Of a DNA stretch of 64,000 bases, positions 45,331 to 63,901 are shown piece by piece (positions within the stretch are counted from its first letter, which is position 1; each line of letters begins with the position of its first letter). The stretch spans positions 279,638 through 343,637 of the forward strand of contig SPEL01000004.1 in NCBI GenBank assembly GCA_009360885.1, given 5' to 3'. The notes beneath the pieces were generated by a model that was not told the origin of the DNA, did no database searches, and saw nothing but the letters and a program-made list of their open reading frames with translations. A program made the position numbers and the translations under genes. This stretch comes from Sphingobium sp. (lineage in GTDB: Bacteria > Pseudomonadota > Alphaproteobacteria > Sphingomonadales > Sphingomonadaceae).

Positions 45331-45421
45331 GGAGCGGTGGCCGAGTGGTCGAAGGCGCTCGCCTGGAAAGTGAGTATACGTCAAAAGCGTATCGAGGGTT
45401 CGAATCCCTCCCGCTCCGCCA
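45331..45421 (+). tRNA. tRNA-Ser (anticodon GGA)
   Basis: A 91-base class II tRNA with encoded CCA. Acceptor arms GGAGCGG / CCGCTCC (then G and CCA) pair. The anticodon stem CTCGC/GTGAG encloses a seven-base loop CTGGAAA, giving anticodon GGA for UCC/UCU codons. A long variable arm is present (TATACGTCAAAAGCGTAT). The T-loop is GGTTCGAATCC. The genomic island begins directly after its last base, so this gene is the integration target; it remains intact. Confidence 0.95.
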
Positions 45422-45569
45422 TTACTTTTTCCAAAACATTGATATTACGCCATAATTCATAGATGGCGTTTTTATCCCCACCAATATACCCACACAAGAA
45501 ACGCGCTAGAGCCTATATTGAGAGCCTGCGAGCGTCAGCCAGCAGATCGTCAATCGCTTTGTCGGTCGG
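45416..45569 (+). repeat. island left direct repeat (copy 1)
   Basis: About 154 bp beginning with the CCGCCATTAC junction of the tRNA 3' end. It matches 63747-63901 at roughly nine bases in ten (judged by eye). The shared part covers the noncoding strip downstream of the tRNA and the last codons of the neighbouring 112-residue lipoprotein-like gene. Confidence 0.85.
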
Positions 45570-45863: not shown

Positions 45864-46288
45864 GCTGCCTCCTTCATGGAAAGGCGCTGGGCGTCGGCCT
45901 CCACATAATCGAAGGCATCTTCCGTCCCGACATAGCAATAGAGTTCTTCGCTCTTGATAAGGTCCACTTTGAACCGGAGCGCGTCGAGGTCTGGCGCTGG
46001 TATCTTGACGAGCGCCTGTGCGGCTTCCCGCTTCGGGTCGCCATATTTCTCATAATAGGGGTCCATCAACGCCTCATGCCGGAAAGCCTCGGCATCATAT
46101 GCGGCGCGGGTTTCGGTTCCCTTCGCAGCAGCAGAGCGACACCCGTATTTCTGCTCAAGCATATATTCATTGGCGATATTAAGCTGTTCACCTCTGAACA
46201 GCGGGCCAAACTCGCCAGCAGCATCACGAACAAGGGCGGCCAGATTATACTGTGCCATTGCGGCATTCCAAGCGGTCCGGCTCATCAT
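45860..46288 (-). CDS. hypothetical phage-block protein
   Basis: A 142-residue protein with no signal or membrane segment. It begins MMSRTAWNAAMAQYN and is rich in Ala, Glu and Tyr. It overlaps the tape-measure fragment upstream and the lipoprotein-like gene downstream (ATGATG/TGA junctions), so all are in one leftward operon. The final residues (VEADAQRLSMKEAA) show a weak resemblance to the end of the neighbour (LLADARRLSI), possibly a distant duplicate. Function unknown. Confidence 0.55.
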   Translation of the reverse strand: MMSRTAWNAAMAQYNLAALVRDAAGEFGPLFRGEQLNIANEYMLEQKYGCRSAAAKGTETRAAYDAEAFRHEALMDPYYEKYGDPKREAAQALVKIPAPDLDALRFKVDLIKSEELYCYVGTEDAFDYVEADAQRLSMKEAA

Positions 46289-50084: not shown

Positions 50085-50780
50085 ATGCACTTGAGCTACC
50101 CGCAAGTTATTACGGTTTTGGCCGGAGTGAACAGTATATCGAAAACAGGCCTAGGGGCTTTCCGTGCTCGCATTAGGAAGCTGCAAGGCGAAGGCGTCCC
50201 GCATGGTGCAAACCCCGGGAAAGGCAAAAGTGTGGCCTATACTCTCGGAATGGTCGTCGAATTAGCTATCGCGATTGAATTAATACAGTGCGGTTTTTCC
50301 CCAGCTGATGCGGGAGGTATTATCAAACCTATCCGTTCGGATGTTTATTGGGCCGCTTTAATGTCTTTGGAAAAAAGTGAGGATCCAGATGCAGAAGATC
50401 CCATTATTTTGATAAGCCCAGAGTCATTAATGCTATATTCGAGAACAACGGAGGTAAAAGATCGATCGAGCGTGATGGCGGCAGCGAGTATCGTGACGCG
50501 TGAAATTTTCTTGAATATCGTCGCGAATGGTTCCGAATTTGATCCGATTATAGGGGTGTATTGGAGATGGTCTTTTATAGATTTGAAGGAGTTGTTCAAA
50601 AATATTAGAAACCATTCTTGGGATGCATTGGATCGTGAAGTTGATGTCGATCATTATATAGAATCAGAAATAAAGAATAACGAAAAAGAATTGCTTTCTT
50701 TCAAGAAAGAGAAGCTGAACAACATGATGTCATGGGGAGGCACATATGGGGGCGCTTCTTTGGTAAAAATTATTTCTTAA
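50085..50780 (+). CDS. MerR-like N-terminal regulator-type protein, function unknown
   Basis: A 231-residue protein with markedly AT-richer codons than its surroundings. Residues 1-80 look like a MerR/HTH module (SISKTGLGAFRARIRKLQGE, YTLGMVVELAIAIELIQCGFSPADAG). This region is distantly similar to the HTH protein at 54087. The remainder has a two-part alpha/beta look with a Lys-rich coiled segment near the C-terminus. Divergent from the AlpA-like gene, it may be the repressor of the element. No recognised family; a regulator role is inference. Confidence 0.55.
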   Translation: MHLSYPQVITVLAGVNSISKTGLGAFRARIRKLQGEGVPHGANPGKGKSVAYTLGMVVELAIAIELIQCGFSPADAGGIIKPIRSDVYWAALMSLEKSEDPDAEDPIILISPESLMLYSRTTEVKDRSSVMAAASIVTREIFLNIVANGSEFDPIIGVYWRWSFIDLKELFKNIRNHSWDALDREVDVDHYIESEIKNNEKELLSFKKEKLNNMMSWGGTYGGASLVKIIS

Positions 50781-51026
50781 CCTTATCGCCCCACCCCAAA
50801 TCCCTCACATTGAGGTAATTCCTGCCTAATATAGCTGCCCCAAATTTGGGGAGGCCAAAGGCACCTCCATCATGGAGACACCTTCACCATCCGTGGCCCG
50901 GACAGTGGGACTTATTTGGGAAGTTCCAAAAAAGGTCAGGGGTATCACTAATGATGATACCCTATGTTAAACATAGACCGTCCCCAGCGACTGCGTACGA
51001 ATTTCGTCCGCGCTTGCGATAAACAA
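50781..51026. other. palindrome-rich intergenic region next to fic
   Basis: Within 246 bp there are three inverted repeats: CCCCAAATTTGGGG (50835-50848), GGTATCA/TGATACC (50941-50961) and CTATGTTAAACATAG (50962-50976). A fourth short palindrome ACGAATTTCGT (50997-51007) also occurs on the far side of the fic gene. I see no open frame. They could be operators, transcription ends, or recombination remnants. Confidence 0.5.
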
Positions 51027-52181
51027 CTATTCGCGCACGATTCTCAACAATGGTTCAAAGCTGTATAAAGCCGGGCGACGACCAGAAGCGGCTTCTATCG
51101 TCTTTAACCATTCTTTCTCAACCAATATGCGCGTAAAACGGTGCGCTGTAGCTTCTGGAATGCCGGAGCGTCGAGTAAAAATGTTATTCCGGAACACTGG
51201 CCGAGCAAATAAGAAATCTAAAGCTGCGGTACTCCATTGAGAGCTGAGTAATTGAGGAAACTCTTTCTTTAACTCTTCATATAAGTCGCGGATACGCTCA
51301 GCAGTTGCAAGATTTTTTTGTGCTTGTGCCTCGATAGCTTCAAGGAAGAAAATCGTCCATTCAGTCCATGCGCCAGATTTTGATACCTCGCGCATACGAT
51401 CGATATATTCATCGCGCCGATCTTCAAAATAGCCACTGATATAAAAATGAGGAGCAGAAATTGCACCGTATTTCCATAACATTAGCGTAATAAGCATTCG
51501 ACCGATGCGGCCGTTACCGTCTTTAAATGGATGCAATGCTTCAAATTCAAGATGAGCGAGGGCTGTTCTGATGAGGATTTGCCAATCCTCAGCTTCTATA
51601 AAATCAAACAGACGATCAAGCCCATCTTGAAGGTGTTCTGGTCGCACTGGTACAAAAAGCACTTTGCGTTTTCCACGGTCGGCTAAATAATTCTGCTCCG
51701 TTTTAAAATCTCCCGGCGAGAGGCTTGCACCGCGACCGAACCCTAACAAAACGCGATGAACGCTTTTAATAAGAAAGCTGGAAAGCGGGGCTCCCTGTTC
51801 GATGCTGCGTTGTGCGTTAGTTAAAGCCCGACCATAAAGAAAAACTTCTACCGCTTCATTTCGGTAATGCGTGCTCCCTGAGGAACCATCTTCCTCTTGA
51901 TCAGCTTCATAACGCAGAACTTCATCAAGTGTACTGATGGTGCCTTCCATACGCGATGATACAACAGCTTCTTGGCTGCGTAATGGTCCCAGAAGGATTT
52001 CGCTATTGTGCATCCCTTTAAGCATCTGATCGTATCGTGCGAGAGCAGAGGCAGCAGCAGCAACGGGCATCATTAGTTTGTTCGCATCCAACTGAGTGGG
52101 CGGGAACTGATCGTAGTGGTAATCAACAGCCTCGGAGAGATCTAAGCCTTGTTGAATCGTCATTTTGATTTCCATATTCAT
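51027..52181 (-). CDS. Fic/DOC-family AMP-transferase-like protein
   Basis: A 384-residue Fic protein. The active-site loop HPFKDGNGRIGRML (consensus HxFx(D/E)GNGRxxR) lies near residue 205 and is intact. An N-terminal inhibitory helix motif SRMEGTISTL (near residue 75) fits the (S/T)xxxE(G/N) of class II Fic proteins, which lack a separate antitoxin and are self-inhibited by this Glu. The C-terminal winged-helix (GIPEATAHRFTRILVEKEWL) may bind DNA. Fic proteins AMPylate or otherwise modify proteins; targets vary. The start at 52181 is one of three possible ATGs. Flanked on both sides by ACGAATTTCGTC. Confidence 0.88.
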   Translation of the reverse strand: MNMEIKMTIQQGLDLSEAVDYHYDQFPPTQLDANKLMMPVAAAASALARYDQMLKGMHNSEILLGPLRSQEAVVSSRMEGTISTLDEVLRYEADQEEDGSSGSTHYRNEAVEVFLYGRALTNAQRSIEQGAPLSSFLIKSVHRVLLGFGRGASLSPGDFKTEQNYLADRGKRKVLFVPVRPEHLQDGLDRLFDFIEAEDWQILIRTALAHLEFEALHPFKDGNGRIGRMLITLMLWKYGAISAPHFYISGYFEDRRDEYIDRMREVSKSGAWTEWTIFFLEAIEAQAQKNLATAERIRDLYEELKKEFPQLLSSQWSTAALDFLFARPVFRNNIFTRRSGIPEATAHRFTRILVEKEWLKTIEAASGRRPALYSFEPLLRIVRE

Positions 52182-52218
52182 GCATTTTTGCAAGACAAAG
52201 TTGTTTGAGTTATCTCAA

Positions 52219-52414
52219 CACCTCTCAAAAGCTTTTGTCTATCAAAATTCAAAAAAAATGACAGGCAAGCGATTTTGAATGGCTTCCATGAGAGGCAAAA
52301 AGGCTTGTCTCTCAAAAGTTGCACATTTTGTTGCTCAAGGACATTTGACTGACACACAGGTCACTCAATTTGATTAGGCTGTCGTAAAAACCTAAAAATG
52401 AGAGACAAAAAGCT
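52219..52414. repeat. clustered CTCTCAAAAG / GAGAGxCAAAAAG repeats upstream of fic
   Basis: Four related copies of a GAGAG(G/A)CAAAAAG-type motif in both orientations occur between the fic start and the integrase stop: near 52219-52240, 52289-52300, 52309-52319 and 52399-52412. They could be operators for the fic gene or arm-type sites. No gene is present in the remaining sequence of this 273-bp gap, which is AT-rich. Confidence 0.4.
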
Positions 52415-52465
52415 AAACAGAAATTTAACATTTAATCTAGCACCGACGAATTTCGTCGTCACAAA

Positions 52466-53671
52466 TCACCCCGCCACCATCCGCATGATGTTGCTGCCAC
52501 CCTCGCAATAATGCGCCCATGCGTTCATCATTTCCTTACGCTTCACCAGCAGGGAACCGCGGCGATAGGCTGCCTCAACCTTGTTCCTGATCGTGTGGGC
52601 CAATGCCGCTTCTGCCACATCGCCGGGGAAGCTGGTCTCCTCTGACACCCAATCACGGAAGGCAGAGCGCATGCCGTGAACAGTGCCGGCTTCTTTCGAT
52701 ACGCCAGCCTCTCGCAAGGCTTTGGCCATGGTGGCATCACTCATTGATTTGCCTTTCAAGCCGGGGAACACAATCGTCTCGCTGGACCGTATCTCCTGAG
52801 CCTGCTCGATAATGGCCACAGCGCGGTCACATAGGGGAACGACATGCTCCTTGCCTGCCTTCATGCGCTCGCCGGGGATGGTCCAAATCTGGGCCTTGAG
52901 ATCAAACTCATCCCATGTTGCCCCGCGCACCTCACCAGAGCGCGCCGCCGTCAGGATCAGGAACTCCAGCGCCATGCTACCGATGCTCTCTGTCTGGCGT
53001 ATGCGCCGGACCAGCCCGGATACCTCGGTATAGGGCAAGGCAGCGAAATTGCCCTTGCTGTCTCCTTGCGGCCCCAGACCAAGGCCTACCGCAGCATTGG
53101 GGACCTGCGTGGTGCGATATTCACGGGCATGTGCCCAGTTCAGCACCGCCATAACGCGCTGGCGTAACCGGCGCCCTGTTTCGGGTCGTTTCTGCCAGAC
53201 GCCCGACAATGCGTCGATGACCTGAACAACGCCGATCTTGTCCACGGCGAGATGCCCGATCTTCGGGAAGATATAAGCCTCCATGGAAGAAAGCCACTGA
53301 TCGACATGCTTCCCGTTGCTCCATACGCCTTTGCGTTCCTCATGGACGCGCTGGGCAGCCTCTTTGAAACTTGGCACCTTGCGTACCGCCATGCGGCGTT
53401 GCGTGCGCGTTAATATGGGGTCGCCATCACGTCCGGCCTTGCGAAGAGTGCGCGCCTTTTCCCTTGCTTCTGCCAGCGATAAATCAGCAAAAGGACCAAG
53501 GCCTATATCCCTCCGCTTGCCTTCTGCATCACGCACGCGGGCAATCCAGCTTTTGGAACCAGTAGCACTCACGCACAGGATTAAGCTATCCCCGATGGAA
53601 TGACGCCCCGGCTTCCGTGCCAAGGAATTGACCTCGGCAATCGTTGCAGGCTTGGTACGACGTGGTGTCAT
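52466..53671 (-). CDS. int: P4-type tyrosine recombinase (integrase)
   Basis: A 401-residue site-specific recombinase. The N-terminal DUF4102-type arm-binding domain covers residues 1-80 (IGDSLILCVSATGSKSWIAR, IGLGPFADLSLAEAREKARTL). The core-binding SAM-like domain follows, then the catalytic domain with Arg in LTAARSGEVRGATWDEF, His-x-x-Arg in HGMRSAFRDWV, His in AALAHT and the nucleophile Tyr in AAYRRGSLL. All catalytic residues are present. The ATG at 53671 starts the conserved sequence; a GTG 36 bases upstream is possible. Integrases of this type normally sit next to an att site, but here the tRNA is 7 kb away. Confidence 0.93.
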   Translation of the reverse strand: MTPRRTKPATIAEVNSLARKPGRHSIGDSLILCVSATGSKSWIARVRDAEGKRRDIGLGPFADLSLAEAREKARTLRKAGRDGDPILTRTQRRMAVRKVPSFKEAAQRVHEERKGVWSNGKHVDQWLSSMEAYIFPKIGHLAVDKIGVVQVIDALSGVWQKRPETGRRLRQRVMAVLNWAHAREYRTTQVPNAAVGLGLGPQGDSKGNFAALPYTEVSGLVRRIRQTESIGSMALEFLILTAARSGEVRGATWDEFDLKAQIWTIPGERMKAGKEHVVPLCDRAVAIIEQAQEIRSSETIVFPGLKGKSMSDATMAKALREAGVSKEAGTVHGMRSAFRDWVSEETSFPGDVAEAALAHTIRNKVEAAYRRGSLLVKRKEMMNAWAHYCEGGSNIMRMVAG

Positions 53672-54086
53672 CTCCGCCCAACTTCCTTTCCACACCATTT
53701 TCCCCACTCGGAGAACTGGTCACGATTAAACAACATTGAACAAAGTTCTGCAATTGTTCTTGTGTGATTGGTGGAAAAACGTGCATTTTTTGGTCGCGGT
53801 TGAACAAGCATGAACAGATGGGAGGCAGACTCCCGCCCGCCAAACACCGCCGATTGCCGCACAAATTGATCAGCTATCTTTTTTATTATCAATCAGATAG
53901 CGTCTTTTAGCGGCTGCCGTGCCGGACACGGGTTCTCGCACACCATAGCAATTCCGTAACCCTCGTCGTGTTGCACCGCCACCACCACTCCTCTCGCGCG
54001 GCAGTGTCAACACCGCCTAGTAGGGCTTGCGCGCAAGCAGCAAACAAGGCATCTTGTGGTCAACAACAAGTTGATAGCGCGGCGAA
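53672..54086. promoter_or_regulatory. noncoding region between int and the defence locus, with GAACA repeats and a tRNA-end-like segment
   Basis: 415 bp without a convincing gene. It contains GAACA-type repeats (TTGAACAA at 53736-53743 and 53800-53807, TGAACAG at 53811, and inverted TTGTTC at 53754), which may be integrase arm sites. ACTCCCGCCCGCCA at 53829-53842 resembles the tRNA-Ser 3' end (CTCCCGCTCCGCCA) with one deletion. A 7-bp stem-loop GCTATCT/AGATAGC spans 53873-53901. The promoter of the downstream operon should lie near 54000-54080. Confidence 0.45.
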
Positions 54087-54569
54087 ATGTCAGTTCTCTA
54101 TACACCAGGCCAGTTAAGGAGCGCTGTTTCGATCGCGCCGGAGACCTATCGGCACTGGAAAAAGGCAATAGCCTCGCTTGATCGTGGTCGCGGCCATAGC
54201 CCCTGTTTCAGCTCAGGCGACATGGTCGCCGCGGCGGTCGTTCGAGCGCTCGCTATCGACCTTTCGGTTCGTGTTGGTGCACTGGCTCCAATGGCGGAAA
54301 CATTGTTTGAGCTGTGCAACAGATCACCGTGGCCGGTTCTCGAACGTACTAAGGTTGTCTTAAATTTGCAGGAGGCAGAGGTGCGCCTCGCTGAAGAACT
54401 GGCGGAGGCGCACAGCGATCAACCGCTTATAATCATCCCTCTGAGAGCGATTGTTGCGCACTTGCGCGAGCAACTGCTTGCAGCAACCGATCATGTGGAG
54501 CAACGATCTTTGCTCTTTCCACCCATCCCGATCGCGAGTGCTGCAACGGCGCAACAAGGTCGGCCATGA
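54087..54569 (+). CDS. MerR-like HTH protein of the defence locus
   Basis: A 160-residue protein whose first 65 residues look like a MerR/HTH module: YTPGQLRSAVSIAPETYRHW (helix-turn-helix) followed by a wing-like CFSSGDMVAAAVVRAL. The C-terminal part is helical and ends in a Pro-rich tail. It is the first gene of a three-gene operon and overlaps the methylase start (ATGA). It probably controls this operon; in other systems small HTH proteins before a methylase act as controllers that keep nuclease expression low. No metal-binding Cys cluster is present. Confidence 0.6.
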   Translation: MSVLYTPGQLRSAVSIAPETYRHWKKAIASLDRGRGHSPCFSSGDMVAAAVVRALAIDLSVRVGALAPMAETLFELCNRSPWPVLERTKVVLNLQEAEVRLAEELAEAHSDQPLIIIPLRAIVAHLREQLLAATDHVEQRSLLFPPIPIASAATAQQGRP

Positions 54570-57052
54570 GCGCGCTTGATCAGATCACCTTGGCTGCACA
54601 CCGCGCGGGGTATCGTGCCGAAGCGGTGGTGCGGGACTATGCGTTTGCCGATGTGCTTGCAGAAGGCAACGATACGCGTACCGTGCCACTGGTCGCGTTC
54701 ACGCGGACCCCCCCGTCTTATCGTTCGGCTGCCTTTGGCGTAGTTGAAAGTGACGGACGTTCCACCATCGAGCTCGTCCAGTCGCACCGTGCGCTGGGTG
54801 CGCCGTTATTGTTTGTCATCGACCGCGATGATGTCACGGTCTGGCAGGTTCGCAGCGAAGGGCCGCCGAGAGCGATCGAGAAGGTCAAGGTCGGCCAGCT
54901 CACCGACCTATTCGAACGCAACCAGGCGGACTGGCATCCTGACGCGATCCATCGCGCAAAGGCGGTTGGGAGCCCCGCAGCCGGCCATCAGCTTGACTTC
55001 GTCGACCTAGGGCTCCTGCCGGCGATTGAAGGGGAAGTCCATCTCAAGCTCGACCGCCTGCTTATCGAAACGCTCGATCTGGCCCGCAAGGCTCTTGGTG
55101 GGGGGCGGCTCGATGTGCGAACCATGTTCAGGGTGGTATTCCGCCTGCTGGCCGCTAAGGTTCTAGAGGATCGCCGTCACCCGTTCTCGGCGGAGTGGGA
55201 TGCCGACAATCTGTCTTCGGTTCTGACGGCTATCGAGCGTTATTATAGCCTGTCACAAATCGATGGGCGGACCAATCCCGTGCTGACGCGTATGTTCGAT
55301 GCGGCATGGACACATCTTCGCGCTGGAATTAACTTTTCTAACATTTCCTCGGACGATCTTGCATTCGTGTATGAGAATACGCTGGTGACGCCGGAGGCCC
55401 GCAAGCTGTTCGGGACGCACAGCACGCCGCGCCAAGTGGCTGAATATATCGTTCAGCGACTAGAGTTGCACCGCTATAAACCGATCGATCTCCAGATCTA
55501 CGAGCCATGTGCTGGTGCGGGCGTCTTCCTCGTATCGGCGCTCAGACACTTACGCGACTTGCTTCCCGTGGGATGGTCGGATCAAGAGCGTCACAACTTT
55601 CTGATCGAGCACATCGCGGGTGATGAAATCGATCCCTTCGCCTGCGAGGTGGCAACGCTTTCGTTGATTCTTGCTGACTATCCCAACCACAATGGCTGGC
55701 ACATCCGTGAAGCGGATCTATTCGTCGACGGTGCGTTGGCAAAGGCGCTGGTCGGCAAGAATGTGATCGTCTGCAACCCTCCTTTCGAAGCGTTCACCCA
55801 AGAAGAAAAGGAGCGTTATCCGGTAGCGAGCAGGAAGCCGACGAAGGCGGTCGCAGTGCTCAGCGCGGTGATTGATGCGCAGCCACTCGCCATCGGGTTC
55901 GTATTGCCGAGGTCCTTCATACTGGAGAAGCAGTTCTCGGAACAGCGTCGCCGCATCGAAGATCTTTACGGCTTCGTCGAGATTGTTGAACTGCCGGACC
56001 GGATTTTTGGCGCATCGAGCGTCGAGTCCGCCGTACTGATCGCGCGCGATCTGCGAGCCGAAGGATCGACGCGTGTTACAATCCGGTCAACAGAAGTCGC
56101 CGACCAAGATCGGGCGGAGTTCCTGAAAACTGGCCGCACGACGGTTCAACGTGAGACCACCCGGGAAGTCGTCCGGCCGGAAGGAGAGCTTTGGATTCCC
56201 CCCCTGCACGATTTGTGGACCTATCTTGCAGAAGCTCCCCAGCTCGGAACGATTTTCAAACCGCGGTGGGGGCTGCGCTGGAATTATGAACAGGATCTCG
56301 CTGCAAGCGATGTTGAGAAGGAAGGCTTTCGCAGAGGGTACCTGAATGCCCGACGCTTCCAACAATATGTCGGCATTCGCGCTACCTGGCTCGATTTTAA
56401 CCTAGAGAACCTGCGTGAGGGCTATGATCAGGATTGGTCGAAGCCGAAGCTCATCATGAATGCGACACGGCTTAGCCGAGGTCCCTGGCGGGTAGGTGCG
56501 GTCGCCGATCTGGAATCGCGCCTCTACTCGCAGCAGTTCTTCGGGCTGTGGCCGCTCACCGACATGACGCCGGAAAGTCTGCTTGCTTATAGCGCGATTA
56601 TCAATGGCCCGATCGTCAATGCCTATCTTACTGTTCATTCACCAAGGGATCGCTTCCGTTCAAACGTGGTCGCACAGGCTCCGATGCCAAGCTACATTCC
56701 GAAGGAGTTGCCCGAGCTTGTCCACGATTATCTGAGTATCCTAACGAACGGTCGTCTCTTTACAGAACCTAGTGCGGATCTCGCCCATCTGCTCTCGTCG
56801 ATCGATGCCGCCGTACTTCGTGGGTACGACCTGCCGCTGCGGCAGGAGCGCCAGTTGCTGAACTTTTTCCGTGGCGCCGAACGCCCGGTTCCTCATCAAT
56901 GGGCGCATTGGGACGACTTGTTTCCGGTGCCGGGACTAACGCTTGCCGAGCGAATCTCCGGTCGGTTCCGCGCAAATGGCGACTGGGTCAAAAAGGTCTT
57001 TCGTGCACTTCCCGATGAAGAGATCACGCTCCTACGCGACTATGTGGCTTGA
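54566..57052 (+). CDS. N6-adenine DNA methyltransferase-like protein of the defence locus
   Basis: An 828-residue protein with a class I methyltransferase core. Motif I, YEPCAGAGVFLVSAL, is at about residues 312-326 and motif IV, VIVCNPPFEAF, at about 400-410; both fit gamma-type N6-adenine methylases. The N-terminal 150 residues contain a nuclease-like or sensor-like region (VAFTRTPPSYRSAAFG, LLFVIDRDDVTVWQV) but no clear PD-(D/E)xK triad. The C-terminal 350 residues probably hold a target-recognition domain. It overlaps the HTH gene and is followed immediately by a PIN nuclease gene. I infer a modification role with the PIN protein as effector; it could also be a regulatory methylase. Confidence 0.75.
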   Translation: MSALDQITLAAHRAGYRAEAVVRDYAFADVLAEGNDTRTVPLVAFTRTPPSYRSAAFGVVESDGRSTIELVQSHRALGAPLLFVIDRDDVTVWQVRSEGPPRAIEKVKVGQLTDLFERNQADWHPDAIHRAKAVGSPAAGHQLDFVDLGLLPAIEGEVHLKLDRLLIETLDLARKALGGGRLDVRTMFRVVFRLLAAKVLEDRRHPFSAEWDADNLSSVLTAIERYYSLSQIDGRTNPVLTRMFDAAWTHLRAGINFSNISSDDLAFVYENTLVTPEARKLFGTHSTPRQVAEYIVQRLELHRYKPIDLQIYEPCAGAGVFLVSALRHLRDLLPVGWSDQERHNFLIEHIAGDEIDPFACEVATLSLILADYPNHNGWHIREADLFVDGALAKALVGKNVIVCNPPFEAFTQEEKERYPVASRKPTKAVAVLSAVIDAQPLAIGFVLPRSFILEKQFSEQRRRIEDLYGFVEIVELPDRIFGASSVESAVLIARDLRAEGSTRVTIRSTEVADQDRAEFLKTGRTTVQRETTREVVRPEGELWIPPLHDLWTYLAEAPQLGTIFKPRWGLRWNYEQDLAASDVEKEGFRRGYLNARRFQQYVGIRATWLDFNLENLREGYDQDWSKPKLIMNATRLSRGPWRVGAVADLESRLYSQQFFGLWPLTDMTPESLLAYSAIINGPIVNAYLTVHSPRDRFRSNVVAQAPMPSYIPKELPELVHDYLSILTNGRLFTEPSADLAHLLSSIDAAVLRGYDLPLRQERQLLNFFRGAERPVPHQWAHWDDLFPVPGLTLAERISGRFRANGDWVKKVFRALPDEEITLLRDYVA

Positions 57053-57057
57053 CCAGG

Positions 57058-57561
57058 ATGGACGCTTATCTCCTCGATACGACCGTCTTGTCGATTTATC
57101 TTGATCCGACGCATCCGCTCCATGCTGAGAAAAGCCAATCTTTGAACGCGCTCCCAGCTGAAGCACCACGCTTTGTTTCTACTGTCGCGCTTGCCGAACT
57201 CACGTTCGGAACGCGCCTCGCGGCCGTTATCGGCAAGGGAAATCTTCCCGCACTTGAAGCCATGCTTACGGAGGCGCGGACCTATGCGGTTCTAGATCTC
57301 ACCCACCATACCGCGACTGCCTACGCCGATCTGAAAGCTCGGATCGCGCAAAAATATCTCGCCAAAGTTCTGCGAAAGGATCGGCCTAAATATATTGAAG
57401 AATGGGTAGACAAGGCTACAGGCAAAAAACTGGGCATTGACGAAAATGATCTTTGGATGTGCGCGCAGGCAAAGGAGCGCGACCTTGTTTTCGTGACCGC
57501 CGACGCACGCATGAAGCGCATTCCCGATGCGGATGACCAAGTTAGAATGCTGATCGTCTAA
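57058..57561 (+). CDS. PIN-domain nuclease (VapC-like)
   Basis: A 167-residue PIN-domain protein. The four acidic residues are present: Asp7 in AYLLDTTVL, Glu47 in VALAELTFG, Asp131 in NDLWMCAQA and Asp149 in VTADARM. This arrangement matches VapC-type endoribonuclease toxins. A lysine-rich insert of about 25 residues precedes the third acidic site. There is no VapB antitoxin next to it, so control must come from elsewhere; its immediate partner is the methylase, whose stop lies five bases upstream. It could cut RNA or DNA. The ATG at 57058 is preferred over the TTG at 57049. Confidence 0.85.
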   Translation: MDAYLLDTTVLSIYLDPTHPLHAEKSQSLNALPAEAPRFVSTVALAELTFGTRLAAVIGKGNLPALEAMLTEARTYAVLDLTHHTATAYADLKARIAQKYLAKVLRKDRPKYIEEWVDKATGKKLGIDENDLWMCAQAKERDLVFVTADARMKRIPDADDQVRMLIV

Positions 57562-57739
57562 ATGACAACCATGATGAGACCGCGCGACCTGAACTTGTTA
57601 TGGTCCTCTTGCATGTATTTGCTGTTGACTGGCCAAATTCTGTAGAAGAATGCGCTACAATTAAATTGAAAATAGATATGTCACCGGGCGTCAATCGATT
57701 CGGCGGCGGAACGCAACAGATAGGAACAATTCGAAGAAT
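57562..57739. other. 178-bp gap between the two defence operons
   Basis: No open frame or strong hairpin is visible. TTGACT near 57624 could be a -35 element but a good -10 at standard spacing is absent. The gap shows that the second operon may have its own promoter. Confidence 0.4.
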
Positions 57740-60430
57740 ATGCTGACCCCGGGGGAAATATACTCCAATCTTGACGACCTCGCGGGAAAACCTCCGCCGG
57801 GAGGCGAGTTCGGCTTGGCGCTGATGGAGGCGGTAGGCGCGCCGCGTGCTACGATCACAAAACTGCGCGAAACCGCCAAAGACGGGGCATTCTTGTGGGC
57901 ACGAATGCTCCGCTTCGAAGCCACCGCATCGGGAGGAGCGGACGCAGCGCTGGACCGGATGCGCGCGGAAGCTGAGGCCGCACCTAAGGGACGTCGTCCC
58001 CGCATATTGCTCGCCTATGATGGCGAGCGCATTGCTGTCTACGACACGAGCCCAAAGTTCGACGAGGAACCGCTGCGCGTTGGCCTCGACATGCTCTCGC
58101 TGGAAGGCGACGTTTTCTTTCCGCTTGGTGGGCACGAGCGATACGTCCCGAAAAAAGAGCGCATGGCCGACGTTCGGGCAACGCGTTTTATCTCGCGCTT
58201 TCATGACGCGGTGCGCGATGCGAACCCGAGTTGGACGACGGAAACGGATCGACACGCGCTCAATATCTTCATGGCGCGGATTCTATTTTGCCTGTTCTCG
58301 GACGATGTCGGCATCTTTGATAAGGACGTGTTCGAAACCGCCGTTCGGCAGTCGAACGTGGACGGTAGTGACCTTGCTGCGTTTCTGCAGAGCGCCTTCA
58401 AGTACATGGACACACCACCAGCGAAGCGGTCGTCGGAGACACGCCCTTGGTCCAAACTGAAGTATGTGAACGGCTCGTTGTTCGAAGAAGACGTGCCTAT
58501 GCCAGCGCTGGACGGACGTTGCCGTAAACTGCTGCTTGACTGTGCGGGGTTGAATTGGAAGCTCATCAATCCTGATATCTTTGGCTCGATGCTTCAGGCC
58601 GTCGTTGACGTTGAGAAGCGCGGCGAACTGGGGATGCATTACACATCGCCAGCCAACATCATGAAGGTGCTGGAACCCATCCTACTCGATCCATTACAAG
58701 CGGAGCTGGAACGGGCTGGAGCGAACAAGGGGCGCCTGCGCGAATTCCTTGAAAGGCTCGGTCGCATCCGCGTGTTCGACCCGGCATGTGGCTCCGGCAA
58801 CTTTCTGATCCTCGCCTACAAGGAGCTGCGGACGCTAGAGACCGAAGCTTTGCGCCGTCTTGCCATGCCGCGGCTGTCGGGTATCGCACTGGAACAATTT
58901 TTCGGAATCGAGATCGACGACTTCGCGTGCCAGGCGGCACGGCTGGGCCTTTGGATCGCCAAGTATCAGTGTGACCAGCAATTAGAATTGGACCTGGGCC
59001 AGCGCACCGACTTCCTGCCGCTTCAGAAGGCTGGGGTCATTGTGAAGGGCAACTCGGCTGAGATCGACTGGTTAGAGGTTTGTCCCCCCAATGCCGAGGC
59101 GGAAACCGTGGTGGTAGGGAACCCGCAGTTCCGCGGCTCATCCTACTGGTCGCCCGAGCAAAAGGCCGACATGGCACGCGTGTTCAAGGGACGCGTCAAG
59201 AACTGGGGTAATCTCGACTACGTGACACTCTGGTTCGCCAAAGCGCGTGATTACGCCCTGGCAACCGGCGCGCCATTTGCATTCGTGGCCACCAACTCGA
59301 TCGTACAGGGCGTGCAAGTCCCAGAGCTTTGGCCGCACCTGCTAGAAGATCTCGAAATTCGTTTCGCACATCGTTCGTTTAAGTGGTCAAATCTCGCCGC
59401 CCACAATGCGGGCGTGACTTGCGTGATTGTCGGCATGGGGCCACCCAGCGCCGCACCCAAGCGTCTGTTCGACGGTGATACCGTGCGCGACGTGGAGGTG
59501 ATCGGCCCCTACCTCGCGCCCGGCACCACGGCGATCGTGGCCAAGACGAGCAAGCCGCTCGCACGGGACCTTCAACCCATGGTCTTTGGCAACAAGCCTA
59601 CTGACGGTGGCAACCTGATCCTAGATCGCAGCGAGCGTGACACTCTGCTGCAGGCGCGCCCTGATGCGGCGCGATACGTGCGGCGGCTCTACGGTTCTCA
59701 GGAGTTGATGAAGGGCATCGAGCGGTATTGCCTGTGGGTCGGGGATGATGAAGTCGAAGCGGCCAAGTTGATTCCAGAACTGGCACGCCGGTTCGAGGCC
59801 GTGGCACGGGACCGGTCGAAGGAAGAGGCTTCGGACATCTCGAAGGCGTTTGCGGATCGCCCTCATCGCTTTCTGCAAAGGGCGGGCGCAGCGAAATCGC
59901 ACACGATTATGGTGCCGCGCCCGGCCAGTAAAGACCGCGAATATCTGCCCGTTGACGTAAAGGACGATACCAACATCACCTCCAGCGAGGCTTTCGGCAT
60001 CTTCGACGGTGCGATCTGGCAGGCTGCCGTTCTATCATCGCGCCTGCATCGGTTGTGGTTGGAGACAGTAGGTGGGCGCCTTAAGGAGGATCCACGCTAC
60101 TCGAATACTCTCGTCTGGAACACCTTTCCTCTGCCTTCCATCTCGGAGCGTCGCAAGGCCGATCTGGAAGAGCACTGGTGGGTAATCGACGAGGCACGAA
60201 AGGAGGCGGGGTTCGGGCGTTCGCTTGGCGATCTCTACGTCCCCGCCACCATGCCTCGCCCCCTGCGCCGCGCACATGAAGAGCTGGACGAAACGATGGA
60301 GACAATCTTCGGCTCACGTCGCTACCGCTCGGATGCCGACCGAATCGAGCACATGCTGCAACTCTATGCACGCATGGCGGCAGGAGAAGCAAAGCCGTCC
60401 AAGATCAAGGAAGAAGAGGTGAACGCATGA
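57740..60430 (+). CDS. MmeI/YeeA-like adenine-specific DNA methyltransferase
   Basis: An 896-residue protein with the layout of MmeI-family (type IIL) enzymes and YeeA. The N-terminal region (1-150) aligns with the MmeI nuclease domain, but the catalytic E-x-K is replaced: FEAT (Glu60, Ala, Thr), so cleavage activity is probably lost. A helical spacer follows. The methyltransferase core has motif I VFDPACGSGNFLILAY (about 345-360) and motif IV VVVGNPQFRG (about 457-466), where NPQF replaces NPPF/NPPY. A C-terminal recognition region ends the protein. Its stop overlaps the helicase start (ATGA). The likely role is host DNA modification or DNA recognition for the helicase. Confidence 0.82.
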   Translation: MLTPGEIYSNLDDLAGKPPPGGEFGLALMEAVGAPRATITKLRETAKDGAFLWARMLRFEATASGGADAALDRMRAEAEAAPKGRRPRILLAYDGERIAVYDTSPKFDEEPLRVGLDMLSLEGDVFFPLGGHERYVPKKERMADVRATRFISRFHDAVRDANPSWTTETDRHALNIFMARILFCLFSDDVGIFDKDVFETAVRQSNVDGSDLAAFLQSAFKYMDTPPAKRSSETRPWSKLKYVNGSLFEEDVPMPALDGRCRKLLLDCAGLNWKLINPDIFGSMLQAVVDVEKRGELGMHYTSPANIMKVLEPILLDPLQAELERAGANKGRLREFLERLGRIRVFDPACGSGNFLILAYKELRTLETEALRRLAMPRLSGIALEQFFGIEIDDFACQAARLGLWIAKYQCDQQLELDLGQRTDFLPLQKAGVIVKGNSAEIDWLEVCPPNAEAETVVVGNPQFRGSSYWSPEQKADMARVFKGRVKNWGNLDYVTLWFAKARDYALATGAPFAFVATNSIVQGVQVPELWPHLLEDLEIRFAHRSFKWSNLAAHNAGVTCVIVGMGPPSAAPKRLFDGDTVRDVEVIGPYLAPGTTAIVAKTSKPLARDLQPMVFGNKPTDGGNLILDRSERDTLLQARPDAARYVRRLYGSQELMKGIERYCLWVGDDEVEAAKLIPELARRFEAVARDRSKEEASDISKAFADRPHRFLQRAGAAKSHTIMVPRPASKDREYLPVDVKDDTNITSSEAFGIFDGAIWQAAVLSSRLHRLWLETVGGRLKEDPRYSNTLVWNTFPLPSISERRKADLEEHWWVIDEARKEAGFGRSLGDLYVPATMPRPLRRAHEELDETMETIFGSRRYRSDADRIEHMLQLYARMAAGEAKPSKIKEEEVNA

Positions 60431-62589
60431 GCGAGAGGGTGAACCAGGCGGGTGAAAATGGGCTCGGGTCTATCACGCTCAATTACGACGGAACAGGCGC
60501 CTCCAAGGTCACCGATAGCCTCGGCATGCGCGCCATGCAGGCCAGGGTATGGGACAAGAGAGATGCGCAGCACCTGCTGGTTAAGTCGCCGCCTGCCTCG
60601 GGTAAGTCGCGCGCGGCCATGTTCGTAGGGCTGGAAAAGCTGCGCACAAACGCCGTCGACCGGGTGGTAATCGCGGTGCCCGAGCGCTCCATCGGTTCCT
60701 CGTTCCGAAACACTGGCCTCGCGGCGGGCGGATTCCACACGGACTGGCGGCTCGACCTCGACCTTTGCACCGTTGGCTCGGAAACCGGGCGCAAGGTGGA
60801 TGAACTGATAGGGTTCCTGCGGGGCGAGAGCGGCGGGCAGACGGCGCTTTGCACCCACTCCACCTTACGCGCAGCCTACGCCAAGACGGATGACGTGGGC
60901 ATGTTTGATCGCGCGCTCGTTTGCGTCGACGAACTGCACCACGCTTCCTCGGATGAGAACAGCAGGCTGGGCAACCTGTTGCGCGGATTGGTTGATCGGG
61001 CGGGGGAAGTGGGGTCCCACGCTGCGCACATCCTCGCTATGACTGGATCGTACTTCCGCGGCGACGGTACGGCGGTGCTTCATCCGCAGGACGAGGCTCG
61101 TTTCGAGAAGGTAATCTACACCTACTATGAACAGCTCAACGGCTATGCGTACCTCAAGACGCTTCGCATTAACTTCCGCTTCTACCAGCGCAATTACCTC
61201 GACGCGATCGGCGACGCTCTTGACCCCCACATGAAGACGATCGTGCATATACCGCATGTTGGCTCAGCCGAGGGCAGCGGTGTCAGCAAGATGTTCGCTG
61301 TGGACGCGATCGTGGATGCGATCGGTGATCGATTGGGAAAGAACCCTAAAACTAGTGTCGATGCCACGACCGGTTTCGTTCACCTCACGGCGGACGGCCA
61401 TACACTCAAGATCGCGAATCTCGTGGACGACAGCGCCGAACGAGAGAAGGTGCTGGCGAGCCTTCGCGCCGTAAAGGACCGCGAAGATGTCGACATTATC
61501 ATCGCGCTGGGTATGGCCAAGGAGGGCTTTGACTGGGTGTGGTGCGAACACGTTCTGACGGTTGGTTATCGGGGGTCGCTGACCGAAGTGGTGCAGATCA
61601 TCGGTCGAGCGACACGGGATGCGCCCGGCAAGACGGAGGCGCAGTTCACCAACCTCGTATCCGCGCCATTTGCAAAGGACGAGGCCGTTAGCCGCGCCGT
61701 CAACGACATGCTCAAGGCCATCTCAGTTTCGCTCCTGATGGAGCAGGTAATGGCGCCGGTCTTCAAGTTTCGCACACAAAAAGGCGCAGACCAATTCGAC
61801 GGCTCGCCTAGCGACGATTCTAAGCCTGTTCCGGTGACTAATGCGGGCGAAATCGAAATTGTTGGTATGCCGGAAATCGACGAAAAGGCCGTGGAAGCGA
61901 TCGAAAACGACTTCAATGACCTGTTTGCCGATGTGCAGAATGACTCGCGCACGCTGACGGTTATGATCAACCCCGACGACCACCACACGGACGTGATGTA
62001 TGACCTCGTCGTCACGGATGTAATCAGGCGGCGCTACCCTGGCTTTTCGGCAGAACAGGTACAGGACGCGGTGGGCCTGTTCGGCGTACGCGCCGGACTA
62101 GGTCGCGAGGTCGCCAAGGATCCAAGCATTATCCAGACGCCCGGCATCTCCGAGGGGGAACAGTCTCTCTTTGGGGAGCCGGACGATGGCGCTGGCGAGA
62201 ATGCCCCGAGCGCATCGAGCGCTGGCGACCGGTTTGTGCAGCAAGCCAAGCGGTTCATAAACGTGCGGGAACTGCAGGTCGACCTGCTTGGCGGCCGACG
62301 CGACTTCGATGACGCCTATGAGTTGTTGTCCAAGGAGCTTTCCGAGGAGTTGCTCGCACGCCTTCACGGCGAGGTTCGGGCTTTGAAGGTGAGCATGACC
62401 CAGGATGAGGCCGAAAAGCTCTATCCCCGCATCAAAGAATTCATTCAGCGCGAAGGTCGCGAACCGAACTTGAATTCCCCCAATGGACGCGAGGTCAGGC
62501 TGGCAGAAGGTTTGGCCTTCATGCGCAAACTTTCGCGAGAAAAGCGTGCTGCCATGGCGGGCGCGGACGGGGGGCAGGTCGATGCCTGA
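60427..62589 (+). CDS. DExH-box superfamily 2 helicase of the defence locus
   Basis: A 720-residue SF2 ATPase. Walker A SPPASGKSRAA (about 54-64), DExH box VCVDELHHAS (about 166-175), motif III AMTGSYFRG (about 204) and motif VI QIIGRATRD (about 390-398) are all present, so it should be an active nucleic-acid translocase. The part from about 430 to 720 has no recognised fold. It is rich in acidic residues and probably couples to the partner proteins. It resembles what I recall of YeeB. It is coupled to both neighbours by short overlaps. Confidence 0.85.
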   Translation: MSERVNQAGENGLGSITLNYDGTGASKVTDSLGMRAMQARVWDKRDAQHLLVKSPPASGKSRAAMFVGLEKLRTNAVDRVVIAVPERSIGSSFRNTGLAAGGFHTDWRLDLDLCTVGSETGRKVDELIGFLRGESGGQTALCTHSTLRAAYAKTDDVGMFDRALVCVDELHHASSDENSRLGNLLRGLVDRAGEVGSHAAHILAMTGSYFRGDGTAVLHPQDEARFEKVIYTYYEQLNGYAYLKTLRINFRFYQRNYLDAIGDALDPHMKTIVHIPHVGSAEGSGVSKMFAVDAIVDAIGDRLGKNPKTSVDATTGFVHLTADGHTLKIANLVDDSAEREKVLASLRAVKDREDVDIIIALGMAKEGFDWVWCEHVLTVGYRGSLTEVVQIIGRATRDAPGKTEAQFTNLVSAPFAKDEAVSRAVNDMLKAISVSLLMEQVMAPVFKFRTQKGADQFDGSPSDDSKPVPVTNAGEIEIVGMPEIDEKAVEAIENDFNDLFADVQNDSRTLTVMINPDDHHTDVMYDLVVTDVIRRRYPGFSAEQVQDAVGLFGVRAGLGREVAKDPSIIQTPGISEGEQSLFGEPDDGAGENAPSASSAGDRFVQQAKRFINVRELQVDLLGGRRDFDDAYELLSKELSEELLARLHGEVRALKVSMTQDEAEKLYPRIKEFIQREGREPNLNSPNGREVRLAEGLAFMRKLSREKRAAMAGADGGQVDA

Positions 62590-63637
62590 AACGATCGACT
62601 ATCTCAACGACGAACTTTTAATCACACCAGACGAGAAGCCTAGGGCAGCGCGAACGCCCCTCCTAGCCCGCGCGGTTGAGGTCATCGAACGCATCAACGC
62701 ATTCATGGCAGATACTGGTGCCGAGCCGGTCTCTGAGCCAGGGCGCAGTGTGCGGGAGCGCATGCTCGCGAATGAACTAGCTGGGCTGCGAGCATCGAAG
62801 GCTGACCTGGATGGGCTAGCATCTTACGATACGCGCAATCTCGTCTTCGGTGGGGTACGTGCCGTAGATCCTCTCGATGATCCGCTACTGGCCGATGGCT
62901 TTGATATCTTCGAAGTGCGTGACGAACTAAAGCCGATGGCGCGCCCCGACTTCGTCGCCGACCGGCGTCCTTGCCCGGATTTCGAGCGTTTCGAGCCGCT
63001 GTTTGATAGCATTCGCAAGGCTGTCGACGATAGGACGCGCAGACCCCAGCCTTTTCGGCAAGAGCGCGTCGAGTTGGGAGAGTTCTTCGTCCTCAAGGGG
63101 CAGCTCGTCCATGTTGCGGACCTTCGCGACGAGCACCGGCGGAATAGTAAGCCGGACGCTCGCCTGCGCGTCATTTTCGACAACGGCACGGAGTCCAACC
63201 TGCTGATGTCGTCGCTCGTCCGACGACTTTACGAAGACAAGGATGCGCGGCGCATCGGCACCACAAATGCCGGTCCCCTTTTCGACGGCGCGCGAACTGG
63301 CTTCGTTTACGTGCTGCGTTCCCGCTCGGATAAAACCGAAGTCAATGGATTGCTTAAGGTAGGCACGACATCGGGAACAGTGGAGGATCGCATTGCGCAT
63401 GCCGAAACGCAGGCGACATTCTTGTTCGCACCTGTAGACATTCTAGTTACCTTCGAACTGGTGGGTCACTCGGCAAAGGAAGCTGAACAGCTTATCCACC
63501 GAGCGCTTCGATCATATCACGTCGCCCTGAGGGTTACGGGACCTGACGGACGATCTTTCAGTGCAACCGAGTGGTTCAAAGTGTCGCCAGAGCTGGTGGA
63601 AAAGGCCATAGAAGAAGCGCTCGGTTTACGGCGGTGA
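62582..63637 (+). CDS. GIY-YIG (T5orf172-type) nuclease-domain protein
   Basis: A 351-residue protein whose C-terminal 110 residues form a T5orf172/MUG113 version of the GIY-YIG fold: GFVYVLRSR (about 240), LLKVGTTSGTVEDRI (about 257-271), the Glu-containing SAKEAEQLIHRAL (about 297) and TEWF (about 329). This fits a DNA nuclease. The N-terminal 230 residues are unlike known domains and acidic. The ATG at 62582 sits inside an ATGCCTGA junction that overlaps the helicase stop; a longer upstream frame is not needed. It is the last gene of the locus and resembles YeeC in position and domain. Confidence 0.8.
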   Translation: MPETIDYLNDELLITPDEKPRAARTPLLARAVEVIERINAFMADTGAEPVSEPGRSVRERMLANELAGLRASKADLDGLASYDTRNLVFGGVRAVDPLDDPLLADGFDIFEVRDELKPMARPDFVADRRPCPDFERFEPLFDSIRKAVDDRTRRPQPFRQERVELGEFFVLKGQLVHVADLRDEHRRNSKPDARLRVIFDNGTESNLLMSSLVRRLYEDKDARRIGTTNAGPLFDGARTGFVYVLRSRSDKTEVNGLLKVGTTSGTVEDRIAHAETQATFLFAPVDILVTFELVGHSAKEAEQLIHRALRSYHVALRVTGPDGRSFSATEWFKVSPELVEKAIEEALGLRR

Positions 63638-63746: not shown

Positions 63747-63901
63747 CCGCCATTACCTTTTTAAAAACATTGATATTACGCCATAATTTATGGATGGTGT
63801 TTTTTATCCCCACCAACATACCCACACAAGAAACACGCTAGAGCCTATATTGAGAGCCGTCGGGCGTCAGCCAGCAGATCGTCAATCGCTTTGTCAGTCG
63901 G
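63747..63901 (+). repeat. island right direct repeat (copy 2)
   Basis: The second copy of the left-end sequence, matching 45416-45569. It starts with the same CCGCCATTAC but without an intact tRNA before it. Its 3' part is a truncated copy of the lipoprotein-like gene, ended by an IS66-type terminus at 63902. Confidence 0.85.
63845..63901 (-). pseudogene. 3' remnant of the lipoprotein-like gene, interrupted by an IS
   Basis: The last 18 codons (PTDKAIDDLLADARRLSI) of a second copy of the gene at 45513-45863, with identical residues. The rest is displaced by the insertion sequence that begins at 63902. Confidence 0.8.

What the first reader, a model, noticed from the sequence alone, without database searches (positions are those of the whole stretch)
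54087..63637. Two-operon methylase / PIN / helicase / GIY-YIG locus, a candidate undescribed defence system
Six genes in one direction inside an integrase-bearing island. They encode two DNA methylases of different type, two nuclease-fold proteins of different type (PIN and GIY-YIG), one SF2 helicase and an HTH protein. The last three genes overlap and match the YeeA-YeeB-YeeC order I recall from Bacillus subtilis. The first three (HTH, N6 methylase, PIN) are coupled to each other but not to any system I can name. No PglZ, BrxL, DUF1998 or phospholipase-D nuclease is present, so it is not BREX or DISARM by content. Co-inheritance of the two halves is the key unknown.
Basis: partly seen in the sequence, partly recalled or inferred. 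Interest (0 to 1): 0.82.

Follow-up and report, generated by a model that had tools for sequence, protein, structure and literature searches.

The report
Methylase-toxin cassette beside known restriction operon
Two separate bacterial defence-type gene sets lie side by side: one is an already described restriction-like trio, the other an apparently undescribed trio in which a DNA-marking enzyme is paired with a predicted cell poison where distantly related operons seem to carry a DNA-cutting enzyme.

Summary
All six genes are real, intact and co-directional, but they are two modules, not one system. D-E-F (57740-63637) is the described dnmA-yeeB-yeeC cluster. A-B-C (54087-57561) is a separate three-gene cassette: a CvkR-like MerR-type regulator, an N6 DNA methyltransferase (MTase) and a VapC-like PIN protein. 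I found it in 29 other loci. Only one has D-E-F beside it, and there identity to the window steps down (92-97% to 77-90%) at the gap between the trios, so their histories differ.

The cassette is the interesting part. The third slot holds PIN in 29 of 30 loci and a RES-domain protein in one, where the MTase carries a fused Xre/MbcA/ParS-type antitoxin domain. More distant operons with the same regulator carry a PD-(D/E)XK-like protein there. An 18-bp palindrome precedes the regulator in 21 of 24 loci measured.

Best reading: a restriction-modification-derived, repressor-controlled toxin-antitoxin (abortive-infection type) module with the MTase as sensor and antitoxin. Architecture is shown; neutralisation, trigger and anti-phage activity are inferred. 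The RES case is n=1. No published description was found in the held library.

The parts
54053..54070 (.). Palindromic operator-like site CTTGTGGTCAACAACAAG (consensus CTTGTTGTNNACAACAAG), ending 16 nt upstream of gene A
   Evidence: <=3 mismatches in 21 of 24 loci with A's start set; only 3 other such matches in ~605 kb; no match in 5 further loci with divergent regulators. In the window 2 matches at <=3 mismatches (this one with 1, another at 22765 with 3) against a shuffle mean of 0.16. A -35/-10 pair (CTTGCG 54026, CATCTT 54050) overlapping it is read by eye; the consensus scan did not list it.
54087..54569 (+). Gene A: CvkR-like MerR-type DNA-binding regulator, 160 aa, with a low-confidence tail (136-160) carrying a conserved QxxLxFPP motif
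   Evidence: AlphaFold model pLDDT 82; Foldseek 7xn2 CvkR E 2.5e-4; alignment A3
54566..57052 (+). Gene B: N6-adenine DNA methyltransferase, 828 aa; N-terminal domain ~1-130 without conserved nuclease residues, MTase (motif YEPCAGAG, NPPF), TRD-like region, C-terminal tail ~772-828
   Evidence: Pfam N6_Mtase 1e-14; SAM-type and NPPF/NPPW motifs in 30 of 30 loci; model pLDDT 84; top folds DrdV, CamA, BrxX
57058..57561 (+). Gene C: PIN-domain protein of the VapC type, 167 aa (an in-frame TTG at 57049 is less likely the start)
   Evidence: Pfam PIN 1.4e-9; profile hits in the PDB are 'Trafficking protein B' (recalled as FitB), 'toxin of toxin-antitoxin system' 3zvk and 'Ribonuclease VapC' 6nkl; acidic residues D7, E47, D131, D149 in 28 of 28 intact copies
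57740..60430 (+). Gene D: DnmA/YeeA-like (MmeI-family) DNA methyltransferase, 896 aa
   Evidence: Five MmeI domains in Pfam; PADLOC REase_MTase_IIG 816 bits
60427..62589 (+). Gene E: YeeB-like SF2 helicase, 720 aa
   Evidence: Pfam Helicase_C and sub-threshold DEAD; homologues in 16 other genomes of the class sample
62582..63637 (+). Gene F: YeeC-like T5orf172/GIY-YIG protein (listed ORF from 62483; likely start ATG 62582)
   Evidence: Pfam T5orf172 6e-13; PADLOC PDC-S57 29 bits; follows E in 12 of 13 relatives examined
52466..53707 (-). Tyrosine integrase of the island (context, not part of either module)
   Evidence: Pfam Phage_integrase 8.7e-16
45416..45466 (.). Left attachment-like repeat at the tRNA-Ser 3' end
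   Evidence: 51-bp direct repeat, 90% identical to 63747-63797; tRNA-Ser 45331-45421
63747..63797 (.). Right attachment-like repeat of the island

Best explanation
Two neighbouring, independent modules. (1) A-B-C is a repressor-controlled toxin-antitoxin-like module derived from a restriction-modification (R-M) operon. A binds the palindrome overlapping its promoter and represses the operon. B is a site-specific N6 DNA methyltransferase that also holds C inactive through its C-terminal module. C is a VapC-like RNase toxin that takes the place of the restriction endonuclease. When B is lost or inhibited (host take-over, anti-restriction proteins that bind methyltransferases), or when it engages unmethylated foreign DNA, C is freed and stops growth (abortive infection and/or addiction of the mobile island). 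Shown: gene order, conserved active sites, a conserved palindrome, different third genes (PIN, RES, PD-(D/E)XK-like), an antitoxin-type domain fused to the MTase in the RES version. Inferred: repression by A, neutralisation of C by B, the trigger, RNA as target, protection from phage. (2) D-E-F is the described DnmA-YeeB-YeeC restriction-like operon.
For: 30 loci including the window: a regulator-type ORF upstream in 29 of 29 where sequence is available (23 by BLAST to A, 6 by position and other queries), PIN downstream in 29 (one frameshifted, L018), RES in 1. The RES case (L049, Rhizobium sp. Q54 plasmid): MTase of 945 aa whose C-terminus matches Xre_MbcA_ParS_C (1.5e-4) and Xre-MbcA-ParS_M (0.011), both below curated cut-offs, and by tblastn 35 plasmid records at residues ~778-945 only, 19 of them annotated as Xre/MbcA/ParS antitoxin and 4 as DUF2384; the next gene is RES (1.5e-16). 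The PIN-type tail of B is missing there. PIN relatives in IMG/VR contigs L064-L066 directly follow SocA/Panacea-type genes. The solved relatives of C by profile include annotated TA toxins. The regulator also heads four operons with a different MTase and a third gene with conserved D...ExK. Palindrome in 21 of 24 loci. Pairwise identities of A, B and C run in parallel (r 0.93-0.96, 28 loci). Independence from D-E-F.
Against: The RES/antitoxin fusion is one locus, and its antitoxin Pfam hits lie below the gathering scores. The PIN-type tail of B matches no known antitoxin, no stand-alone copy was found, and a tail model from the window-like clade does not reach the betaproteobacterial tails. 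The palindrome is absent in L021 and L049, degenerate in L004, and absent from five more loci with divergent regulators. One of four IMG/VR relatives of C (L063) does not follow a Panacea gene. No complex was modelled and no toxicity, methylation or phage data exist. Distant relatives with a nuclease-like protein in slot 3 allow the alternative that C acts on DNA. PADLOC gives no hit for A or C.
Confidence: 0.55

Rival explanations
1. A-B-C is an ordinary regulated R-M system in which the PIN protein is the restriction nuclease (it cuts unmethylated DNA) and A is a controller protein.
For: Slot 3 holds a PD-(D/E)XK-like protein in distant operons under the same regulator; B is a full MTase with conserved motifs and structural kin DrdV/BrxX.
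Against: C's profile and solved relatives are VapC-type proteins, two distinct sequence kin follow Panacea antitoxin genes, and RES, not known to me as a nuclease family, can fill the slot with an antitoxin-type domain fused to the MTase.
Confidence: 0.2
2. A is the antitoxin of C (DNA-binding N-terminus, disordered tail, as in classical type II pairs) and the MTase is only a passenger or an epigenetic switch of the operon.
For: A has a DNA-binding fold and a low-confidence, conserved tail, and a conserved palindrome precedes it.
Against: A's tail motif is kept when slot 3 is RES or nuclease-like, so its partner is likely common to all; the MTase lies between A and the third gene in all 29 loci that show both and it is the MTase that carries the antitoxin-type domain in L049.
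Confidence: 0.12
3. All six genes form one multi-layer defence system.
For: Adjacent and co-directional in the window and in L003; in L003 the block is flanked by 70-bp direct repeats.
Against: 1 of 19 loci with B has D-E-F adjacent; 4 of 22 distinct other B genomes (23 handles searched) have YeeB anywhere; identity and dS step between the halves in the only shared pair.
Confidence: 0.04
4. A-B-C serves mainly as an addiction (stability) module of plasmids and islands rather than anti-phage defence.
For: Found on plasmids and near integrases in the window, L005 and L015.
Against: Several neighbours are defence-type genes: R-M, Shedu, AbiEii, defence-type reverse transcriptase (hand-picked neighbours); this does not exclude both roles.
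Confidence: 0.09

Closest known systems
dnmA(yeeA)-yeeB-yeeC of Bacillus subtilis and Vibrio crassostreae (PMC9973331, PMC7261158; passages read)
   Same: D-E-F: same order, same domains (MmeI-type MTase, SF2 helicase, T5orf172/GIY-YIG)
   Different: Nothing basic seen; the window copy has open frames. B. subtilis deletions showed no phage effect; deletions of dnmA and yeeB in V. crassostreae are reported in PMC9973331 (citing another study) to raise sensitivity to some phages.
Type II toxin-antitoxin systems of the VapBC/FitAB kind and Xre-RES (PMC2701414, passages read)
   Same: C is a VapC-like PIN protein; the RES variant has an Xre/MbcA/ParS-type antitoxin domain
   Different: The partner is an 828-945 aa DNA methyltransferase with a separate MerR-type regulator, a three-gene unit
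Type II/IIG R-M enzymes, incl. DrdV (7lo5), and BREX BrxX (9ewz) as structural kin
   Same: MTase fold and motifs; regulator-MTase-effector order; distant relatives carry a PD-(D/E)XK-like third gene
   Different: In the window's family slot 3 is a TA-type toxin and B's N-terminal domain has no conserved acidic or lysine residue between 20 and 100
EcoprrI-PrrC (anticodon nuclease held by a type I R-M complex; recalled, not from a call)
   Same: An RNA-attacking toxin kept silent by a DNA-modification complex, a functional analogue
   Different: Unrelated toxin, no HsdR/HsdS here, dedicated regulator
CvkR, MerR-type repressor of type V-K CAST (PMC9938897, passages read)
   Same: Fold and size of A; CvkR acts at an inverted repeat in promoters
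   Different: Another operon and target; four CvkR-family proteins are reported there as fused to an hsdR-restriction domain

Membership tests
dnmA-yeeB-yeeC (D-E-F) | MmeI-type MTase, SF2 helicase, T5orf172 protein in this order, adjacent | tested here: met
   in 13 relatives F follows E in 12 and D is found upstream in 12, directly in 7 and after a 0.5-1.3 kb gap in 5
dnmA-yeeB-yeeC (D-E-F) | MTase lacks an active PD-ExK nuclease motif | tested here: inconclusive
   No D...ExK seen by eye in residues 1-172 of D; MmeI_N matches at 6.6e-12; not tested by structure
Type II toxin-antitoxin (A-B-C) | Third gene of a toxin family with intact active site | tested here: met
Type II toxin-antitoxin (A-B-C) | Adjacent gene encodes a protein antitoxin module for that toxin | tested here: inconclusive
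   Met for the RES version L049 (sub-threshold Pfam); the tail of the PIN version has no known antitoxin relative
Type II toxin-antitoxin (A-B-C) | Toxicity and neutralisation | not testable with these tools
   needs experiment
Type II R-M (A-B-C) | DNA MTase with SAM and NPPY/F-type motifs | tested here: met
   NPPF 27, NPPW 3 of 30 loci
Type II R-M (A-B-C) | Cognate DNA endonuclease | tested here: not met
   Slot 3 is PIN; B's N-terminal domain has no invariant D/E/K in residues 20-100. PIN acting on DNA is not excluded experimentally
BREX | PglZ and BrxC/PglY | tested here: not met
   Nine proteins of 50085-63637 scanned; only D touches PglX models, weakly. The rest of the window was not scanned
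DISARM | DrmB (DUF1998) and DrmA helicase with phospholipase D protein | tested here: not met
   the same nine proteins: only DrmMI-type MTase similarity of D (97 bits) and B (15.7 bits)
MADS | MAD2 equivalog plus other MAD proteins | tested here: not met
   NF047738 17.5 bits for B against cut-off 720; PADLOC mad2 45.7 bits for B and 58.7 for D, no other MAD model

The most novel reading that the evidence does not exclude
A class of R-M-derived systems with an interchangeable effector slot: under one CvkR-like repressor, a DNA methyltransferase is paired with a DNA nuclease, a PIN RNase or a RES NAD-consuming toxin. In the toxin versions the methyltransferase itself is the antitoxin and sensor, so the cell answers foreign DNA or methyltransferase inhibitors by attacking RNA or NAD instead of DNA.
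Probability: 0.45. Interest if true: 0.85.

Novelty: new variant of a known kind. Interest (0 to 1): 0.66.

Why it matters
If right, it links restriction-modification and toxin-antitoxin systems by showing the restriction enzyme's place taken by toxins that attack RNA or NAD, with a DNA methyltransferase as antitoxin. It would give a genetically simple three-gene system to test how a DNA-modifying enzyme can control abortive infection and whether phage anti-restriction proteins trigger it. It also indicates that the neighbouring YeeABC trio is a separate system.

Tried and rejected
One six-gene system: rejected. BREX, DISARM, MADS: rejected by content of the nine proteins scanned. Relatives of B in phage records: none by tblastn at E 1e-8. 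In viral contigs two scans with B-type queries found none and one gave two contigs that read as DnmA-YeeB pairs, so the cassette was not seen in viral sequence. A stand-alone relative of B's tail next to a PIN gene: not found. A family or solved relative of the nuclease-like third gene: none in Pfam for four copies, none in PADLOC for three, none meaningful in the PDB for one; its PD-(D/E)XK assignment rests on a motif and conservation read by eye. Terminators or sigma-70 promoters: no more than in shuffles. YeeB frequency in B genomes (4 of 22 distinct) versus the class sample (16 of 384 others) was not tested statistically, and the B genomes are not a random sample. The neighbour scan for defence genes used 10 hand-picked large neighbours, four of which (L006 and its relative L007, L047, L049) I already knew or suspected to be defence genes; 7 of 10 hit defence models, 3 (L005, L018, L042) did not, so this is no unbiased enrichment.

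Literature: paper searches (listings), with passages of PMC9973331, PMC7261158, PMC12839542, PMC2701414, PMC3710099 and PMC9938897, gave no description of an HTH-methylase-PIN or methylase-antitoxin system in the held open-access library. Subscription papers and newer defence databases were not searchable here.


Full report
Observation. The six genes are present as described, all on the + strand. Pfam gives N6_Mtase for B, PIN for C, five MmeI domains for D, helicase domains for E (Helicase_C above, DEAD just below the cut-off) and T5orf172 for F. A has no family hit, but its AlphaFold model (mean pLDDT 82) matches the MerR-type repressor CvkR best (7xn2, E 2.5e-4, 20% identity). The island is bounded by a 51-bp direct repeat, 45416-45466 at the end of tRNA-Ser and 63747-63797. 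The integrase is at 52466-53707.

Two modules, not one. A scan of genome contigs with B gave 19 loci. All 19 have B followed by C, and a regulator-type ORF precedes B in 18; in the nineteenth (L016) the contig starts at the MTase. D-E-F is adjacent in one, L003 from Brucella pseudogrignonensis; L014 and L016 hold under 0.4 kb downstream and cannot tell, but no YeeB was found in their genomes. In 385 genomes of the class B is in 3 and E in 17, both only in the window's genome. Among 23 handles carrying B, two of which are one genome (L008 lies in the contig of G318), 4 have YeeB anywhere, adjacent only in L003. In the collinear stretch shared with L003, nucleotide identity per 400 bases is 90% in the first window, 92-97% across 54235-57434, 77-90% across 57435-63434 and 95% at the end. 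Synonymous divergence is 0.12, 0.17 and 0.24 for A, B and C but 0.64 and 0.91 for D and E (F not computed). The halves therefore seem to have different histories even where they sit together. L003 does carry 70-bp direct repeats on both sides of the six-gene block, so the block may have moved as one piece at some point.

D-E-F. This is the dnmA-yeeB-yeeC arrangement. Passages of PMC9973331 and PMC7261158 describe DnmA as an MmeI homologue without a nuclease motif, followed by a helicase and a T5orf172 protein. They report no phage or transformation effect in B. subtilis and cite raised phage sensitivity of dnmA and yeeB deletions in Vibrio crassostreae. Of the 14 loci returned by the class search for E, L025 is the window itself; among the other 13, F follows E in 12 (not L032) and part of D is found upstream in 12 (not L037). 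D is directly upstream in 7; in 5 (L032-L035, L038) a gap of 0.5-1.3 kb separates D and E, room for a further gene.

A-B-C is a conserved cassette. Counting once each, I have 30 loci including the window: 19, 3 plasmid loci L047-L049, and 7 further genomes (G097, G573, G582, G1115, G1144, G1204, G1484). MTase motifs are kept in 30 of 30 (NPPF 27, NPPW 3). PIN is the third gene in 29; its acidic residues are kept in 28 of 28 intact copies, and the remaining copy (L018) is frameshifted while its MTase is intact. A regulator-type ORF lies directly upstream in 29 of 29 where sequence exists: 23 match A by BLAST; six (L020, L021, L043, L044, L070, L071) do not and were assigned by position, mutual similarity and a weak alignment or sub-threshold MerR_1 hit (L021's has no Pfam hit). 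Pairwise identities of A, B and C are correlated (r 0.96, 0.94, 0.93; 28 loci; relatedness not corrected for). Frequency is low: besides the window's own, 2 of 384 genomes in the class sample, 2 of 397 in the phylum sample and 2 of 198 in the family sample (the same two as in the phylum sample). In samples centred on known carriers, 6 of 247, 2 of 180 and 2 of 181, of which 4, 1 and 1 are carriers known before.

Operator. An 18-bp palindrome, CTTGTTGTNNACAACAAG, begins 29-40 bases before the start of A as set in the script in 21 of 24 loci with <=3 mismatches. L004 has 4 mismatches; L021 and L049 lack it; five more loci with divergent regulators (L020, L043, L044, L070, L071) have no such match anywhere. 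Only three other matches occur in about 605 kb. By eye it overlaps the -10 part of a promoter (CTTGCG/CTTGCC, 18 nt, CATCTT/TATCTT), although the E. coli-type scan did not list one. This fits autorepression, as an inverted repeat is the reported site of CvkR (PMC9938897, passages).

The third slot varies. In Rhizobium sp. Q54 (L049) the cassette is regulator (34% identical to A), MTase (46% to B over residues 4-775) and a RES-domain protein (1.5e-16) instead of PIN. There the MTase lacks the PIN-type tail and ends in about 165 residues matching Xre/MbcA/ParS antitoxin domains. The Pfam hits are below the gathering scores, but tblastn finds 35 other plasmid records matching only this part, 19 annotated as Xre/MbcA/ParS antitoxin, 4 as DUF2384, two with RES also under the match. 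A search with A found four more operons (L076-L079): regulator (28-37%), an N6 MTase of about 1030 aa that resembles B only around the motifs (internally deleted in L079), and a third gene of 217-237 aa without Pfam hit. Alignments show conserved D...ECK or D...EAK, which I read as PD-(D/E)XK nucleases; a fifth, L080, has such a third gene and MTase without a recognised regulator. Of four sequence relatives of C found in IMG/VR, L064 and L065 directly follow SocA/Panacea antitoxin genes by Pfam, L066 has the same gene pair as L065, and L063 has another neighbour. C's profile hits among solved chains are 'Trafficking protein B' (1.8e-6; recalled as FitB), an uncharacterised protein, a 'toxin of toxin-antitoxin system' and 'Ribonuclease VapC'.

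Mechanism. A's low-confidence tail with QxxLxFPP is kept in PIN, RES and nuclease-like versions (FAP or FGP/FVP in the more divergent ones), so I infer that A touches something common to all, most likely the MTase. The MTase C-terminus differs where the effector differs, so I infer that it touches the effector. In the RES version that part is an antitoxin-type domain. Hence the MTase is most likely the antitoxin, and the system an R-M operon whose endonuclease was replaced by a toxin. B's model has a helix-strand-strand-strand-helix-strand N-terminal domain and its best fold match is the type IIL enzyme DrdV (the type label is recalled), but no acidic or lysine residue between 20 and 100 is invariant, so any ancestral nuclease there is probably inactive. 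The trigger is unknown: loss or inhibition of B, or binding of unmethylated DNA.

Limits. The RES fusion is a single locus. The PIN-type tail has no recognised antitoxin relative, and a tail model built from the window-like clade misses the betaproteobacterial tails. No complex was predicted and no experiment exists. The defence context (type ISP or IIG R-M, Shedu, AbiEii, defence-type reverse transcriptase next to the cassette) comes from hand-picked neighbours. Novelty rests on absence from Pfam, NCBIfam and PADLOC 2023 and on nine paper searches of one open-access library.

Noticed in passing
window 45416-45466 and 63747-63797: 51-bp direct repeat (90%) bounding an ~18.4 kb island at tRNA-Ser; the contig ends at the window's right edge.
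   Followed up: partly
window 51027-52193 (-): Fic-domain gene (PADLOC SoFic 343 bits) in the same island; a Fic gene also precedes the related cassette in Mameliella (L078 5589-6728), and a weak Fic relative follows it in L008.
   Followed up: no
window 46285-47370 (-): Fragment matching phage tape measure protein, suggesting prophage remains in the left part of the island.
   Followed up: no
L003 9209-9278 and 19133-19202: 70-bp direct repeats (90%) on both sides of the six-gene block, without an integrase seen between them.
   Followed up: partly
L079 7450-9182: Methyltransferase gene of a regulator-MTase-nuclease-like operon is internally deleted while the third gene is open, so the third protein alone may be tolerated.
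   Followed up: no
L018 12446-12954: PIN gene frameshifted while its methyltransferase is intact.
   Followed up: no
L064 5251-6399, L065 3196-4318, L066 301-1423: SocA/Panacea-type antitoxin gene directly followed by a PIN gene related to C, in contigs of a viral collection (L066 repeats L065).
   Followed up: partly
L072 5008-10541, L073 4948-9716: DnmA-like and YeeB-like genes on viral-collection contigs; in L072 an extra 262-aa gene lies between them. Five chromosomal relatives also have a 0.5-1.3 kb gap there.
   Followed up: no
L015 13296-15014 (-): Defence-type reverse transcriptase (RT-Toprim_I-C model, 724 bits) beside the cassette.
   Followed up: no
L006 13117-16647, L007 13014-16646: Type ISP-like restriction enzyme starting about 14-117 bp after the PIN gene, on the same strand (Pfam run on L006 only).
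   Followed up: partly
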